Shown here in pieces: positions 25,512 through 30,896 of a stretch of 64,000 nt of DNA. The DNA is taken from assembly GCA_027532905.1 (NCBI GenBank), contig JAPZUA010000004.1, forward strand, positions 1 to 64,000, read 5' to 3'. The translations under genes and the position numbers were made by a program. This stretch comes from Magnetospirillum sp. (GTDB lineage: Bacteria > Pseudomonadota > Alphaproteobacteria > CACIAM-22H2). Under the pieces are notes generated by a model. The model saw only the letters and a program-made list of their open reading frames with translations. It did no database searches and was not told the DNA's origin. Position 1 is the stretch's first letter; each line of letters opens with the position of its first letter.

Positions 25512-26852
25512 TCAAGCCGGCGCAGGCAGCCGAAGCACGACCTTTAGCCCGCCCAATTCCGAAGTTTCAAGCGCCACGCTGCCCTTGTAGAAAGCAACGA
25601 GCTCGTCGGTGATCGCCAGGCCGAAGCCGGTACCGGGCATCGCTTCGTCGAGCCGTGCACCACGCCGCAAGACCTCGGCGCGCGCTTCGGGCGCAATGCC
25701 CGGCCCGTCGTCTTCGACGACGCATTGCAGCTGCGGACCGCTGCGCGTCAACGACAGTCGAACATCGCGCTTCGCCCATTTGAGCGCGTTGTCGAGCACG
25801 TTGCCGACGATGTCGGACAGGTCGTCGGGACTTCCGGCGAAAGTCAAATCGGCACCGCGAAGCAACGTGCGAATCGTCCGGTCGCGATGCACGCGGCCCA
25901 GCGCATCCGCCAGGCGCAGAACGACCGTACGCGCATCGGTCTGCAGGCCGCTTTGCGCGCTCGCCGCACCCGCGCGCGCGCGCGCAAGATGGCGTTCGAT
26001 ATGGCCCTGCATCGCGGCACTTTGGACGCGCACGATTTCGGCCGAGGGCGGCGCGCCGCCGTCGGCTTCGTTGCGCAGCACTGCCAGAGGCGTCTTCAAC
26101 GCATGCGCAAGATTGTCGGCTTCCGCGCGTGCGCGTTCGACCAGATTGCGATTGCGCGCAATCACATCTTTGAGGTCGGCCACGAGCGGTGCGACTTCGC
26201 GCGGCCAGACCTCGTCGAGTGCAGCTTCGCGTCCGCGTTTCAATTCCAAAACCGCCGCCCGCAGCCGCCGCAGCGGCGCGAGGCCGAAATGGATCTGCAA
26301 CACGACCGCCAGTGCCAGCCCTGCGCCAAGGGCTGCGAGCGAAAACGCCAGCGCCGTCCGGAAAGAGGCAAGCGCTTGCGCCAGTTCATTTTCGTCCGAA
26401 GCGACCACAAGCCGCACCGGCCGCTCGAGGCCTTCCAAGCCGACGCTGCGCTCGACCGCAATCAGCGTCTGGCCGTCGGGTCCCGCAAGACGATGGCGGT
26501 GGATTTCCCCAGGCTTCAGTTCGTCCGGTGGATTCGGCAACGTGAAATCCCACAAAGAACGGGACCGCAGCATCGGCCGACCGGCAACCTCGATCTGCCA
26601 ATAGCGTCCGGAATAGGGACGGTCGTAGAGGCTGTCAGGCAGTGCACGCGAGAGACGAACCGTGCCGTCGGGCACGGCCTCGATCGCTGCGACGACATGG
26701 TCCATGTCGTCGATCAGGTGCGACTCGAGGATCGACGCTGCCTGCCCACGAAAGATCTCGACGAGGCCGAAACCCGCCCCGACGAGCGCTGCGCACAGCC
26801 ACAGCAGTGCGGCGGCGGCAAGACGGCGCTGGATCGACCCCGCCTTGTTCAC
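25512..26852 (-). CDS. Two-component sensor histidine kinase
   Basis: A 446-residue protein with two membrane helices (about residues 11-32 and 166-190) flanking a periplasmic sensor of about 130 residues, then a HAMP-like linker. The phospho-acceptor is His250 in NLAHALKTPLAVL. The ATP-binding domain has the N box VLDNALKWAK, the G1 box VEDDGPGIAP and the G2 box GTGFGLAI. The architecture is PhoQ/QseC-like. The GTG start overlaps the response-regulator stop (GTGA), so the pair is coupled. The signal is unknown; PepSY and cytochrome b561 neighbours suggest an envelope or redox stress input. Confidence 0.93.
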   Translation of the reverse strand: MNKAGSIQRRLAAAALLWLCAALVGAGFGLVEIFRGQAASILESHLIDDMDHVVAAIEAVPDGTVRLSRALPDSLYDRPYSGRYWQIEVAGRPMLRSRSLWDFTLPNPPDELKPGEIHRHRLAGPDGQTLIAVERSVGLEGLERPVRLVVASDENELAQALASFRTALAFSLAALGAGLALAVVLQIHFGLAPLRRLRAAVLELKRGREAALDEVWPREVAPLVADLKDVIARNRNLVERARAEADNLAHALKTPLAVLRNEADGGAPPSAEIVRVQSAAMQGHIERHLARARAGAASAQSGLQTDARTVVLRLADALGRVHRDRTIRTLLRGADLTFAGSPDDLSDIVGNVLDNALKWAKRDVRLSLTRSGPQLQCVVEDDGPGIAPEARAEVLRRGARLDEAMPGTGFGLAITDELVAFYKGSVALETSELGGLKVVLRLPAPA

Positions 26853-27523
26853 GAGGCACCTTCCGGCGGCGCGCGCAGCCGATATCCGCGCCCGCGCACC
26901 GTCTCGATCGCATCGACGCCGAGCTTGCGCCGCAGGCGCCCCACGAACACTTCGATCGTGTTGCTGTCGCGGTCGAAATCCTGCGCGTAGATATGTTCAG
27001 TCAGTTCGGTGCGCGAGACAACGGCCCCCGGACGATGCATCAAATACGCAAGGGTTTTGTATTCCTGCGCCGTCAACGCGACCGGCATGCCGTCCACATC
27101 GACGCGCCCGCTGCGCGTGTCGAGACGGATCGGTCCGCAGCTCATTTCGGCGCTCGCCAAGCCCGCCGCGCGCCGGACGACCGCACGCAGCCGCGCAAGC
27201 AGCTCGTCCATGTGGAAAGGTTTGGCAAGATAGTCGTCGGCGCCCGCATCGATCCCCTCGACCTTTTCGGTCCAGCCTGCGCGCGCCGTGAGGATGACCA
27301 CGGGGATGCGGTTTCCGGCCCGCCGCCATTGCCGCAGCACCGTCAGACCGTCGATCTTCGGCAGGCCGAGATCAAGGATCGCTGCGTCGAACGGTTCGGT
27401 CGCACCCAAAAACGCCGCTTCCTCGCCGTCGGCCGCACAGTCCACGGCATAGCCGGCGGCCTTGAGGGAGGCTGCGACCTGTGTTGAGAGAGTGGGGTCG
27501 TCTTCGACGACAAGAATGCGCAT
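26849..27523 (-). CDS. OmpR-family response regulator
   Basis: A 224-residue protein. The receiver domain begins MRILVVEDDP with phospho-acceptor Asp51 in AAILDLGLP and Lys in YLAKPFHM. The C-terminal winged helix has LTAQEYKTLAYLMHRPG, then VFVGRLRRKLG and TVRGRGYRL. Paired with the histidine kinase immediately downstream. Likely targets are the adjacent PepSY genes, which flank it on the same strand (27543) and divergently (27975); that is inference from position. Confidence 0.95.
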   Translation of the reverse strand: MRILVVEDDPTLSTQVAASLKAAGYAVDCAADGEEAAFLGATEPFDAAILDLGLPKIDGLTVLRQWRRAGNRIPVVILTARAGWTEKVEGIDAGADDYLAKPFHMDELLARLRAVVRRAAGLASAEMSCGPIRLDTRSGRVDVDGMPVALTAQEYKTLAYLMHRPGAVVSRTELTEHIYAQDFDRDSNTIEVFVGRLRRKLGVDAIETVRGRGYRLRAPPEGAS

Positions 27524-27542
27524 GGGTGGAAGCGTACTCCGA

Positions 27543-27845
27543 TCAGCGGGCGAGGCGTTCGAGCGTTCGGGCGTCGTAGTACAGCTTGCGGCGATTGCCG
27601 TCGGGCGCAAGCAGCTTGATCTCGTAGACGTAGCTCCCGCCTTTGCGCTCAAGCTCGACATCGACAACCCGGCCCGGCGCGTCGCGCGCGACGGCTGCAA
27701 GCAGCTTGTCGAGCCCCACAATCTCGCCGGCTTCGCGCGCCCGGCGCGCACGCTCGTGGTCTCCGTCGGCAAAGGCGGGGACTGCCGACGCAAGCAACGC
27801 GACCATCGCCATCAATGCAAGCAACCTGCAAAACATCGAATTCAT
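27543..27845 (-). CDS. PepSY-domain periplasmic protein
   Basis: A 100-residue protein with a cleavable signal peptide (LLALMAMVALLASAVPAFA). It then has one PepSY module: ARRAREAGEIVGLDKLLAAV, VVDVELERKGGSYVYEIKLL and a KLYYDARTLE end. PepSY proteins are thought to modulate peptidases or sensors in the envelope. It lies 19 bp upstream of the response regulator in the same orientation, so it probably heads that operon and may sense for or restrain the kinase. Confidence 0.88.
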   Translation of the reverse strand: MNSMFCRLLALMAMVALLASAVPAFADGDHERARRAREAGEIVGLDKLLAAVARDAPGRVVDVELERKGGSYVYEIKLLAPDGNRRKLYYDARTLERLAR

Positions 27846-27974
27846 CCTTGCATATTGCAGTCCCGAATCTGAACGGCAGATGAACGGCGCACTCACGCCC
27901 CGTTCAGTCGCAAGCGCGCATATTCGCGTCGTTCCCCGGCATTCCGCCGGGCGAATAGACCGGAGATCGCCGCC

Positions 27975-28298
27975 ATGAAAACAAGTTTTGCCTTTGGACT
28001 CGTCGCTTTGTCGCTGCTCGCCGCACCTTCTTTCGCATCGGAGCGGGAGCGCAGCGCGCCCGCCGCCGCCCCGAAGCTCACGCTGGGCGAGGTCGATCCC
28101 CGAGTCCGCGAAAACGGCTACTTGGCCGTTCGCAGCATCGAACTGAAACGCGACGGCAGCTACGAAGTGAAGGCGATCGACGCCGAAAATCGTCGCACCT
28201 CGATCCGCGTGGACGGCAACACAGGTGCGTTTTCCCCCGACGACGATGGGCGCCGGTCGGGTACGCGCGAGCGCCGCGACGGCGGCGATCGCCGTTGA
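27975..28298 (+). CDS. PepSY-like secreted protein
   Basis: A 107-residue protein with signal peptide FGLVALSLLAAPSFASE. It then has a short PepSY-like segment: VRENGYLAVRSIELKRDGSYEVKAID followed by RTSIRVDGNTGAF. The tail is rich in Arg and Asp. It is transcribed divergently from the other PepSY gene and two-component operon, 129 bp away, so it is a likely regulon member. The split cytochrome b561 gene follows 65 bp later. Confidence 0.82.
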   Translation: MKTSFAFGLVALSLLAAPSFASERERSAPAAAPKLTLGEVDPRVRENGYLAVRSIELKRDGSYEVKAIDAENRRTSIRVDGNTGAFSPDDDGRRSGTRERRDGGDRR

Positions 28299-28307
28299 GC
28301 CTTCAGC

Positions 28308-28334
28308 CCCGGCGCCGGGTTGACCGGCGCCGGG
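28308..28334 (+). terminator. GC-rich perfect hairpin between PepSY gene and cytochrome b561 gene
   Basis: CCCGGCGCCGG at 28308-28318 pairs perfectly with CCGGCGCCGGG at 28324-28334 around a five-base loop. It begins 10 bases after the PepSY stop. There is no T-run, so it could be an attenuator, an mRNA-stabilising intercistronic hairpin, or a weak terminator. Confidence 0.5.
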
Positions 28335-28363
28335 ACCAACCGCCACGCTCGGGAGTACCGCCC

Positions 28364-28514
28364 ATGTTTGCAACGCCCCAATCTGCCGTGCCCGGCAATC
28401 TTGCCCGTCTCTTCCACTGGATCATGGCCGCCATGATCCTCGGTCTCTTCGCGCTCGGCAGTGCGCTCGAAGAGTTCCCGCGCGGATCGGCGCGCGATTT
28501 CGGCATGATGCTGC
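28364..28514 (+). pseudogene. Cytochrome b561, 5' part (disrupted by IS)
   Basis: Codons 1-50 and the first base of codon 51 of a cytochrome b561-type membrane protein: LARLFHWIMAAMILGLFALG, the first helix with a heme-ligand His, then RDFGMML. The frame is broken at 28514/28515 by the TnpB element. Joining 28514 to 30012 restores codon 51 as CAT and the sequence MLHQSFGLLF, giving a normal 179-residue protein. As it stands the product would be truncated and unable to bind both hemes. Confidence 0.88.
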
Positions 28515-28730
28515 GTGACTCCTCCCCGTCCCGAAATACGGGGCTTCGGTTCGCACTTCGCGCGAAAGACCGCTGACGCGGCCCTTCGGCTCACGCCGCA
28601 ACCTTCTTGAGGCTTGCGCCTATTGGTTTCTGCTTCGCAGACCGCCTATTGGCGAGGTCTCCACAGACTGCCAGCGGAAGTCCTCCGCCAGTGGTTTCGT
28701 TGACATACGCGGCAAGGCCGCGCTTGAGAA
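28515..28730 (-). ncRNA. Predicted omega RNA (TnpB guide RNA) region
   Basis: By analogy with characterised IS605-type elements, the guide RNA is transcribed with the 3' end of tnpB and ends at the element's right end, here 28515, with the guide running into the flank below 28514. The right end has a hairpin at 28524-28543. The 5' boundary given here is a guess. Basis: family knowledge, not a covariance match. Confidence 0.4.
28524..28543 (-). repeat. Right-end subterminal hairpin of the TnpB element
   Basis: CCCCGT (28524-28529) pairs with ACGGGG (28538-28543) around an 8-base loop, 9 bases in from the element boundary. Elements of this superfamily carry such imperfect palindromes for transposase binding, and they also form part of the guide RNA scaffold. 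Confidence 0.6.
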
Positions 28731-29871
28731 CAACATTCGCCGCATTCACATCGGCATGCGCCTCGAAGCCACACGCAACGCAGCGGAAATCTGCCTGCGA
28801 CAGCCTCGAGGCTGTATCGACGTGATCGCATTCCGAGCAGGTCTGCGACGTGAAACGCGGATCGACTTCGACTACTCGGCATCCATGCCATTCGGCCTTG
28901 TAGCCGAGCTGGCGCCGAAACTCACCCCATCCTTTGTCGAGGATGGCGCGGTTGAGGCCGGATTTCTGAGCGACATTCCGTCCTGGCTCTGCTGCAGTTC
29001 CCGCAGCAGAGGCCGTCATTTTCACTACATCAAGCTTTTCGAGGACGATCAGGCCGTGGCTCTTGGCAATCCGATGCGTCAACTTGTGCAGCATGTCCTT
29101 GCGTCGACGCGCCATACGCGCCTTGTGCCCCGCAATTCGTTGAATCGCCTTGCGGCGGTTATTCGAACCGCGCTTCTTGCGCGATAGAGATTTCTGCAGA
29201 CGGCGCAAGCGCAACTGCTCACGCGGACCTTCGGTCGTTTGGCCATGGGCTTCACCCGTCGAGAAAACGAACGGGGAGGCCACGCCGCGATCGATGCCGA
29301 TGGCTGTCGCCAGCGGATCTTGCGCGGAGCGTTGCGACGCCGGCTTGACCTGTCTTTCGACCGAAAACGACGCGTACCAGGCTGCGCCATCGCGCGAAAT
29401 TGTGAGATTTTTGATTTTTCCGCAAAGCGGACGGTGAAGACGGATCGCGAGAGCGCCGAAGTCTTTTCTAGTTTTGCCGAATTTCGGCGCGATCAGCGCT
29501 GGCGACGTCACGTTGACATGAAATTGCTTGGGATCAGGGAAGCGGAAGCTCTCGGCTCTGCCGCGGCGGCGGTAGCGCGGATAGCCGGCCCGGCCGTCGA
29601 AGAAATTCGCGAAAGCGCGATCAAGGTCGCGCAGCGCCGACTGCAGACAGTGGGAAGGGATGTCGTTGAGCCAAGGCGCTTCGGCTTTTAGAGCGGGTAG
29701 CTCATTCACTTGCGGGACATAGCCAATGGCGCGGCCGCGCCGACTGAAACGCTCGCGCTGTTCGAGTGCCAGATTGTAGACGAAGCGGCACGCACCGACG
29801 ATCTGCCGGAAGAACGCTTCCTGGGCAGGCGTTGGGTAGATGCGGTAGCGATAGGCTTGGCGGCGGAGCAT
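28591..29871 (-). CDS. tnpB: TnpB RNA-guided nuclease (IS200/IS605 superfamily)
   Basis: A 426-residue protein with the TnpB layout: an N-terminal helical/OrfB_IS605 region (AYRYRIYPTPAQEAFF), then a split RuvC nuclease. Catalytic residues are all visible: Asp194 in GIDRGV, Glu278 in LEKLD and Asp374 in HADVNAAN. The zinc finger has CSEC (345, 348) and CVAC (364, 367). TnpB cleaves DNA matching its guide RNA next to a TAM and thereby retains the element at the donor site. The ATG lies in AT-rich left-end DNA. Nothing suggests inactivation. Confidence 0.94.
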   Translation of the reverse strand: MLRRQAYRYRIYPTPAQEAFFRQIVGACRFVYNLALEQRERFSRRGRAIGYVPQVNELPALKAEAPWLNDIPSHCLQSALRDLDRAFANFFDGRAGYPRYRRRGRAESFRFPDPKQFHVNVTSPALIAPKFGKTRKDFGALAIRLHRPLCGKIKNLTISRDGAAWYASFSVERQVKPASQRSAQDPLATAIGIDRGVASPFVFSTGEAHGQTTEGPREQLRLRRLQKSLSRKKRGSNNRRKAIQRIAGHKARMARRRKDMLHKLTHRIAKSHGLIVLEKLDVVKMTASAAGTAAEPGRNVAQKSGLNRAILDKGWGEFRRQLGYKAEWHGCRVVEVDPRFTSQTCSECDHVDTASRLSQADFRCVACGFEAHADVNAANVVLKRGLAAYVNETTGGGLPLAVCGDLANRRSAKQKPIGASLKKVAA

Positions 29872-29965
29872 GAGGCAATTTATAATACTTTAAGATGAAT
29901 TGTTAAGTATAATTTTTTAAATTAGGTTGTTAATTTCAACGGCAAGCCGATATGGTTACGCGTCC

Positions 29966-29995
29966 GCAAACTCCGCCCTAAAGGACGGAGTTTGC
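29966..29995 (-). repeat. Left-end subterminal hairpin of the TnpB element
   Basis: GCAAACTCCG at 29966-29975 pairs perfectly with CGGAGTTTGC at 29986-29995 around a 10-base loop. It ends 16 bases inside the element boundary at 30011. It is the expected transposase-recognition palindrome of the left end. Confidence 0.7.
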
Positions 29996-30011
29996 GCGGT
30001 CGAAAGAGAGG

Positions 30012-30400
30012 ATCAATCCTTCGGTCTGCTCTTCGTGGCCCTACTGTTGGTACGCCTCGGCGTGCGGCCTACCGCGGCCACGACTGGGTCGGCCTTCGGC
30101 CGCTGGAGTGCGCGCGCGATGCATGCGGCCCTTTATGCGCTGATGTTTGCAACGCCGCTTGCCGGGCTCGGCAATCAATGGGCGCGCGGTCGCGCATCGG
30201 ACTTCTTCGGTATGGTGATGCTGCCCTCGCCTTTGGCGCCCGACCGGGCGCTGGCCAAGATGTTTGGCGAAATCCACGAAACGGCAGCTTCGGCGATCCT
30301 CGTACTCGCCGGCATCCATGCGCTTGCGGCACTCTGGCATCACTTCGTGCGCCGCGACGACGTGCTGCGCAATATGCTGCCAGGCAACGGGCGCAGCTGA
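30012..30400 (+). pseudogene. Cytochrome b561, 3' part (disrupted by IS)
   Basis: This is the remainder of the interrupted gene: QSFGLLFVALLLVRLGVRP, then MHAALYALMFATPLAG, GEIHETAASAILVLAGIHA and LWHHFVRRDDVLRNML. It contains further conserved helices and His residues of the family. It is in phase with the 5' part once the element is removed. By itself it lacks a start codon and the first helix. In intact form it would be an electron-transferring diheme membrane protein. Confidence 0.88.
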
Positions 30401-30896
30401 GCCCACGCGACGGCGCCGGGCAAGCGAGCCCTTGCTTCTCGCCCGGTACCGTCCGCGTCGGTTGCGCAATCGAATGCGCAGCAAGAAAACTTCGTACCTG
30501 GATCTTTTAAAGATAAAAGCTATTTTTCAATAAAAAGAAAATTAGCTTAGTTCTTGAAATATACTCGTCTTTATGCTCGAATCATCCATCGCCGTCGGGG
30601 TCGTACCCGGCTTCGTGCGCTGTTTGATAAGTGAAGAAATACGAACCGGAACGCAGACGCATCGCGTTTGCCCCCGCAACAGGTAACCATGAATCGTCAT
30701 TGTGGTTACATGCGAGGAATATCAATGCTTTAAACCGGAGACGGTCGCGGTTTGTCGCGTTTGGTAACCTATTTCGAGCGCTGCACCTGTTGCGTTGCGG
30801 CAAGTTTGTTGCCTCGCGGCCTCGAGCCACCTATGTTCCCGCACCCGGCCTTGCCCCCCGCCCGTGCCGGGTTTTGCTCCAACCGCTGCAGGCGCC
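30401..30896. other. Intergenic region with AT-rich patch, no gene assigned
   Basis: There are 496 bases between the cytochrome b561 remnant and lepA. Bases 30500-30575 are strikingly AT-rich against the GC-rich background, with runs such as AAAAGCTATTTTTC and AAAAAGAAAATTAGC that can form a weak stem. A minus-strand 82-codon frame (30582-30830) ending YDPDGDG is open but has no recognisable family. The lepA promoter should lie here, but I cannot point to a convincing -35/-10 pair. Confidence 0.4.

What the first reader, a model, noticed from the sequence alone, without database searches (positions are those of the whole stretch)
28515..30011. TnpB-only element sits inside a heme-ligand codon of cytochrome b561
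Joining base 28514 to 30012 restores CAT and the sequence MLHQSFGLLF, with the probable second-helix heme-ligand His51. The site is immediately 3' of TTGAT on the element strand, as for ISDra2-type targets, and there is no target duplication. The host gene is otherwise intact. Precise excision would restore it, so the insertion could act as a reversible off-switch for a membrane electron-transfer protein.
Basis: partly seen in the sequence, partly recalled or inferred. Interest (0 to 1): 0.75.

Follow-up and report, generated by a model that had tools for sequence, protein, structure and literature searches.

The report
TnpB element interrupting cytochrome b561
A small RNA-guided-nuclease transposon has landed precisely inside a membrane electron-transfer gene in one bacterial genome and broken it; the case is clean but ordinary, and nothing found suggests that it works as an on/off switch.

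Summary
A 1,497-bp element (28515-30011) splits a 179-codon cytochrome b561 gene inside the His51 codon. Two same-genus genomes carry the uninterrupted gene (88% and 73% protein identity over the 3' part), with LHQSFG here and no codon gained or lost. TTGAT abuts the left tip. The right tip GAGTCAC recurs in three relatives with unrelated flanks. TnpB keeps its three RuvC residues and zinc-ribbon cysteines.

The off-switch reading is not supported. No Y1 transposase, second copy or exact empty site was found in the host assembly. The guide predicted from the right-end flank, with TTGAT, matches the restored b561 allele itself, so an active TnpB would favour retention over reversible switching. 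The heme-ligand position needs no special cause: the gene holds only two TTGAT sites, one being CAT-CAA, His51-Gln52. Neither close relative has TTGAT there.

Verdict: a TnpB-only (IS1341-like) member of the IS200/IS605 group, probably recently inserted, disrupting one b561 gene. New member of a known kind.

The parts
28364..28514 (+). 5' part of cytochrome b561 gene (codons 1-50 and the first base of codon 51)
   Evidence: Ni_hydr_CYTB match 21.5 bits, below the 30.1-bit cut-off on its own; alignment to G004 and G008 orthologues
28515..30011 (-). TnpB-only IS200/IS605-group element, 1,497 bp, single copy found in the host assembly
   Evidence: ends fixed by empty sites; right end also by related copies
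28591..29871 (-). tnpB, 426 aa; D193, E277, D373 (numbered on the 425-aa query, which starts at the second residue; counted by me) align with D191, E278, D361 of ISDra2 TnpB; CxxC...CxxC zinc ribbon
28515..28740 (-). conserved 3' end of tnpB plus right end: presumed omega-RNA (reRNA) scaffold; 5' limit inferred; 28591-28740 is also coding
   Evidence: mean column identity 84% over 4 copies; 67 predicted pairs, 6 with a compensatory change, 14 broken or gapped in one sequence
28524..28543 (-). right-end hairpin, 6-bp stem, followed by AGGAGTCAC at the tip
   Evidence: not significant by energy alone (z -0.32)
29965..29996 (-). left-end hairpin, 14-bp stem, 15 nt from the tip
   Evidence: z -4.15, 0 of 200 shuffles as stable
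30012..30016 (-). TTGAT target / transposon-associated motif at the left tip (host bases; His51-Gln52 codons CAT CAA)
28495..28514 (-). predicted guide segment of the reRNA (host flank next to the right end)
   Evidence: inferred from the ISDra2 rule in PMC8612924 (passages); no exact TTGAT-plus-guide target in the own genome
30012..30400 (+). 3' part of cytochrome b561 gene (rest of codon 51 to stop)
   Evidence: Ni_hydr_CYTB 69.4 bits; 88% identical to G004 and 73% to G008
29906..29933 (-). promoter-like site upstream of tnpB (TTAACA-16-TATACT)
   Evidence: consensus match only (4 such sites in 2.3 kb, 0.7 expected from shuffles)

Best explanation
A tnpA-less, TnpB-carrying element of the IS200/IS605 group (IS1341-like) inserted 3' of a TTGAT on the strand opposite to a cytochrome b561 gene, and inactivated it. 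Shown by sequence: exact insertion, no target duplication, no loss of host bases, intact TnpB reading frame with the RuvC residues, a right end shared with relatives. Inferred: insertion was catalysed in trans by a Y1 transposase that the host assembly does not show now. Inferred from ISDra2 biochemistry: TnpB with an RNA made from the right end, whose guide is the first 16-20 nt of b561 flank, cuts a TTGAT-bearing empty allele, so that repair copies the element back in. The b561 loss is then a side effect, perhaps cushioned by two other b561-family genes in the genome.
For: Two same-genus empty sites. Three related copies sharing the right tip GAGTCAC with different flanks, one of them (L072) a 3' fragment; in L069 a Y1 transposase gene lies divergently beside the TnpB gene. 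No Y1 match in the host genome. Single copy. RuvC residues and zinc ribbon. ISDra2 rules: insertion 3' of TTGAT without duplication, reRNA from the right end with about 16 nt of flank as guide, TTGAT as TAM, donor joint as proposed target (PMC8612924, passages). Two further b561-family matches in the host genome, on C5 and C2.
Against: Neither relative has TTGAT at the empty site (CAC CAG instead of CAT CAA), so the ancestral TTGAT is inferred, not seen. Left flanks of the two relatives with a readable left end read TTGTT and TTGAAT rather than TTGAT, so the motif of this group is not firmly TTGAT. The left end is hardly conserved: blastn matches to the two nearest copies start only at element base 140 and 162, and the G009 left end does not fold better than shuffles (z 0.21). 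Nuclease activity and RNA production are untested. The host assembly is 95.68% complete, so a transposase could be missing.
Confidence: 0.85

Rival explanations
1. Reversible off-switch: the element excises at useful frequency, restores b561 and is maintained because switching is advantageous.
For: Precise excision would restore the frame, and the host gene shows no other lesion.
Against: No Y1 transposase in the host assembly; no second copy and no exact empty site found; the TnpB guide predicted by the rule would target the restored allele. Excision frequency was not measurable here.
Confidence: 0.03
2. TnpB is domesticated at this site, for example as a guided regulator of b561.
For: Single copy and no transposase found.
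Against: Nuclease residues D193, E277, D373 are kept; both element ends are present; the site is empty in the two genomes with a close orthologue, so the insertion is not shared by them.
Confidence: 0.03
3. The downstream b561 half is still expressed from a start inside the element (TTG at 29927) as a truncated fusion.
For: The frame runs open from the element into b561 for 157 aa; a promoter-like match on the + strand at 29857-29886.
Against: The fusion lacks helix 1 and has Asp in place of His51, so loss of heme binding is expected; the start and promoter are pattern matches only.
Confidence: 0.05
4. Assembly artefact joining unrelated contigs.
For: Assembly of 13 contigs; read data not available.
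Against: The element lies 28.5 kb inside a 557,957-base contig; both flanks join into one exact gene with element ends on both sides.
Confidence: 0.02

Closest known systems
ISDra2 (IS200/IS605 group, Deinococcus radiodurans)
   Same: Inserts 3' of TTGAT without duplication (PMC8612924, passages), partly palindromic ends, TnpB with the same RuvC residues; reRNA and TAM rule assumed from it
   Different: ISDra2 carries tnpA; this element does not. TnpB proteins are distant relatives (141 bits)
IS1341 group (TnpB-only elements, PMC9956272, passages)
   Same: One tnpB gene flanked by left and right ends, single copy; no stretch over 20 bp shared with the Y1 gene of the nearest relative, close to the criterion of that paper
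   Different: No difference found; not compared with ISfinder entries, and serine recombinase genes were not used in the remnant test
Same-genus elements in G010 (tnpA plus tnpB, L069) and G009 (tnpB, no Y1 found, L070)
   Same: TnpB 74% and 68% identical over full alignments; same right tip GAGTCAC
   Different: Inserted elsewhere; the G010 copy has a Y1 transposase gene, whose HUH motif reads HIR rather than HIH

Membership tests
IS200/IS605 superfamily, IS1341-type (TnpB-only) | TnpB gene with HTH, OrfB_IS605 and Cas12f1-like TNB domains | tested here: met
   Pfam PF12323, PF01385, PF07282, each above cut-off; NCBIfam NF040570 guided_TnpB 300.4 bits, cut-off 100. The narrower model NF038281 IS200_TnpB matches at 236.8 bits, below its cut-off of 425
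IS200/IS605 superfamily, IS1341-type (TnpB-only) | No Y1 transposase or serine recombinase gene inside the element; no tnpA remnant | tested here: met
   No Y1 match anywhere in the host genome; only 140 nt left and 76 nt right of tnpB remain; best match of the left end to the L069 left-end/tnpA stretch is 10 bp, in the hairpin. Serine recombinase families were not searched
IS200/IS605 superfamily, IS1341-type (TnpB-only) | Insertion 3' of a short motif without target-site duplication | tested here: met
IS200/IS605 superfamily, IS1341-type (TnpB-only) | Subterminal hairpins at both ends | tested here: met
   left z -4.15; right 6-bp stem weak by energy (z -0.32) but present in 4 of 4 copies aligned. 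In G009 the left hairpin is not significant (z 0.21)
ISDra2-like target specificity (TTGAT) | Related copies also follow TTGAT | tested here: inconclusive
   2 relatives with readable left end: TTGTT (L070) and TTGAAT (L069, tip uncertain by 1-2 nt)
Active RNA-guided TnpB nuclease | RuvC D-E-D residues | tested here: met
   D193, E277, D373 align with D191, E278, D361 of 8H1J/8BF8 (D191 is named in PMC8612924; that E278 and D361 are catalytic is recalled)
Active RNA-guided TnpB nuclease | reRNA made and target cleaved | not testable with these tools
   needs RNA sequencing and a cleavage assay
Prokaryotic cytochrome b561 (Ni_hydr_CYTB) | Family match and His pattern of the host gene | tested here: met
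   3' part 69.4 bits, cut-off 30.1; seven His at equal positions in G004 and G008; G004 orthologue matches 5OC0 at E 1.4e-12

The most novel reading that the evidence does not exclude
The tnpA-less element persists as an RNA-guided homing element: its guide covers the b561 codons before the heme-ligand His, so it can convert intact b561 alleles of the same population that carry CAT CAA, spreading a loss of b561 without any transposase.
Probability: 0.2. Interest if true: 0.45.

Novelty: new member of a known kind. Interest (0 to 1): 0.25.

Why it matters
It is a clean natural case, with empty sites in sister species, of a TnpB element without a transposase sitting where its own predicted guide, with TTGAT, matches the restored host allele and no exact site elsewhere in the assembly. 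That makes it usable to ask whether TnpB alone can keep or spread an insertion. It does not reveal a new kind of system.

Tried and rejected
Off-switch idea: tested by looking for a transposase, other copies and an empty site or other guide target; none found. The typed pattern gave 6 matches with 2-3 mismatches in the own genome (control pattern: 2), none exact; one of the six is the element's own right-end junction, which is also the single match in the window.

Heme-codon targeting as a rule: I read the codons at the HxxxG position in loci L004-L032 with a regular expression; 0 of 20 pattern hits, from 17 of 29 loci, carried TTGAT. Some of the 20 look like hits in other frames or other proteins, and 12 loci gave no hit, so the count is rough. 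No sign of recurrent targeting.

Intron or IStron: Rfam over 28300-30500 gave 1 match at E up to 1, rnk_pseudo at 22.6 bits against a gathering score of 55, taken as chance. The element lies antisense to b561.

Origin by loss of tnpA from a G010-like element: left ends look alike by eye and in a forced alignment, but the best local match is only 10 bp; not claimed.

Plasmids: no DNA match to the b561 5' part. TnpB relatives in 3,628 plasmid records, in 3,618 of them below 60% identity in the best place and in 10 at 60-80%: a common family. The one genome-contig scan gave 10 loci of 31-47% identity.

Papers: PMC8612924, PMC11870625, PMC9956272 and PMC11869295 were seen as passages; others only in search listings. 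PMC11869295 names H151 as a ligand of heme 1, with H158 and H87 at the quinone site; the ligand role of His45 was not found in the passages shown.

Full report
Observation. The window is the first 64 kb of a 557,957-base contig of a 4.26-Mb, 13-contig assembly estimated 95.68% complete. Bases 28515-30011 hold a 1,497-bp element whose longest ORF is on the minus strand (28591-29871, 426 aa). Joining 28514 to 30012 gives a 179-codon frame reading FGMMLHQSFGLLF. Its 3' part matches prokaryotic cytochrome b561 (69.4 bits, cut-off 30.1); its 5' part matches the same family below cut-off (21.5 bits).

Empty sites. I searched 61 genomes (own plus 60 relatives) with the 3' part; 39 of 61, own included, had some match, and two, both same-genus, are close: G004 at 88% and G008 at 73% identity. 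Both carry the gene uninterrupted, with LHQSFG at the point in question. A PepSY-like ORF similar to the one at 27543-27842 lies on the upstream side in both (judged by eye). The joined gene aligns to both without a gap at the junction. Left identity stops after 28514 and right identity resumes at 30012, so the boundary is fixed without using the motif. At the DNA level both relatives read CAC CAG where the join has CAT CAA, so they lack TTGAT; the ancestral TTGAT is an inference. Both codons are in normal use here, CAA as the minority form (16 CAT to 12 CAC, 13 CAA to 40 CAG in four frames that I took as neighbouring genes).

Element. On the element strand the left tip follows TTGAT directly. 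A 14-bp-stem hairpin lies 15 nt inside (z -4.15). The right tip ends GGGGAGGAGTCAC after a 6-bp-stem hairpin that is weak by energy (z -0.32). Three further copies in two same-genus genomes (L069 and the 3' fragment L072 in G010, L070 in G009) end in the same GAGTCAC before unrelated flanks. The last 226 nt, of which about 150 are also coding, are conserved in the four copies (84% mean column identity). A consensus fold has 67 pairs, 6 with a compensatory change and 14 broken or gapped in one sequence (four sequences, covariation term -0.94): weak evidence for an RNA scaffold. The left end is less conserved: blastn matches start at element base 140 (L033) and 162 (L034), and the G009 left end gives no significant hairpin. 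TnpB has the three expected Pfam domains, and D193, E277 and D373 align with D191, E278 and D361 of ISDra2 TnpB structures 8H1J/8BF8 (counted by me).

Transposase. Y1_Tnp (PF01797) has 0 matches in the host genome; the control search rings in 5 of 14 known genomes. Of 23 genomes (own plus 22 relatives) 7 have a match; within the genus 2 of 11, G010 strongly and G004 weakly (26.3 bits). In G010 a Y1 gene (143 aa) stands divergently beside a TnpB 74% identical to this one. Its HUH motif reads HIR against HIH in the ISHp608 structure, so even that copy may be impaired. TnpB homologues occur in 9 of 96 genomes examined, own included. One TnpB copy was found in the host.

Mechanism. In ISDra2 the transposase excises a strand and inserts it 3' of TTGAT without duplication; TnpB carries an RNA from the right end whose last ~16 nt are host flank; TTGAT is the TAM; and the proposed target is the empty donor joint, which repair then refills (PMC8612924, passages). 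Applied here, the guide is minus-strand 28514 downwards (GCAGCATCATGCCGAA...), and TTGAT plus this sequence would arise in a b561 gene without the element. No exact TTGAT-plus-guide target is present in the host genome. A precise excision would thus create the one site that this TnpB should cut. A preprint reports that plasmids with the insertion gain an advantage over empty targets that depends on the TnpB nuclease and not on TnpA (PMC11870625, passages). These are inferences for this element; activity was not tested. They speak against a freely reversible switch and for retention, or homing into a matching allele.

Heme codon. His51 aligns with His45 of E. coli b561 (5OC0, alignment, residue numbers counted by me). 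That this is a heme ligand is recalled; the paper I consulted names H151 as a ligand of heme 1 (PMC11869295, passages). The restored gene has only two TTGAT sites, both on the minus strand, one of them CAT CAA at codons 51-52. Hitting it needs no explanation beyond motif availability, and 0 of 20 rough pattern hits at this position in relatives carry the motif.

State of the host gene. Apart from the insertion the gene is intact. dN 0.09 and dS 0.52 against G004 reflect mostly the time before insertion; the intact frame suggests a recent insertion, but its age is not measured. Two other b561-family matches exist in the genome (C5 47%, C2 36%), so redundancy is possible.

Conclusion. This is a TnpB-only IS200/IS605-group insertion, a new member of a known kind.

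Noticed in passing
L069:3015-3446 (G010:C227): Same-genus IS605-type TnpA reads DDHIRLL where the solved ISHp608 transposase has DHIHIL: the second His of the HUH motif is Arg, so this transposase may be inactive. A second Y1 transposase in that genome (L071) keeps HVH.
   Followed up: partly
L075 and L076 (G048): A 23-bp stretch of the left-end hairpin region is identical in two TnpB loci of another genus whose longer TnpB is only 39% identical; the left-end hairpin may be more widely shared than the protein.
   Followed up: no
25512-28298: b561 sits beside a two-component system (best NCBIfam models PhoQ and PmrA, both below their cut-offs) and two PepSY-domain genes; a similar PepSY ORF lies upstream of b561 in G004 and G008 (by eye).
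   Followed up: partly
L072 (G010:C76), about 2336-2985: A 3' fragment of the same element group overlaps a second TnpB match on the opposite strand: remnant of nested or decayed copies.
   Followed up: no
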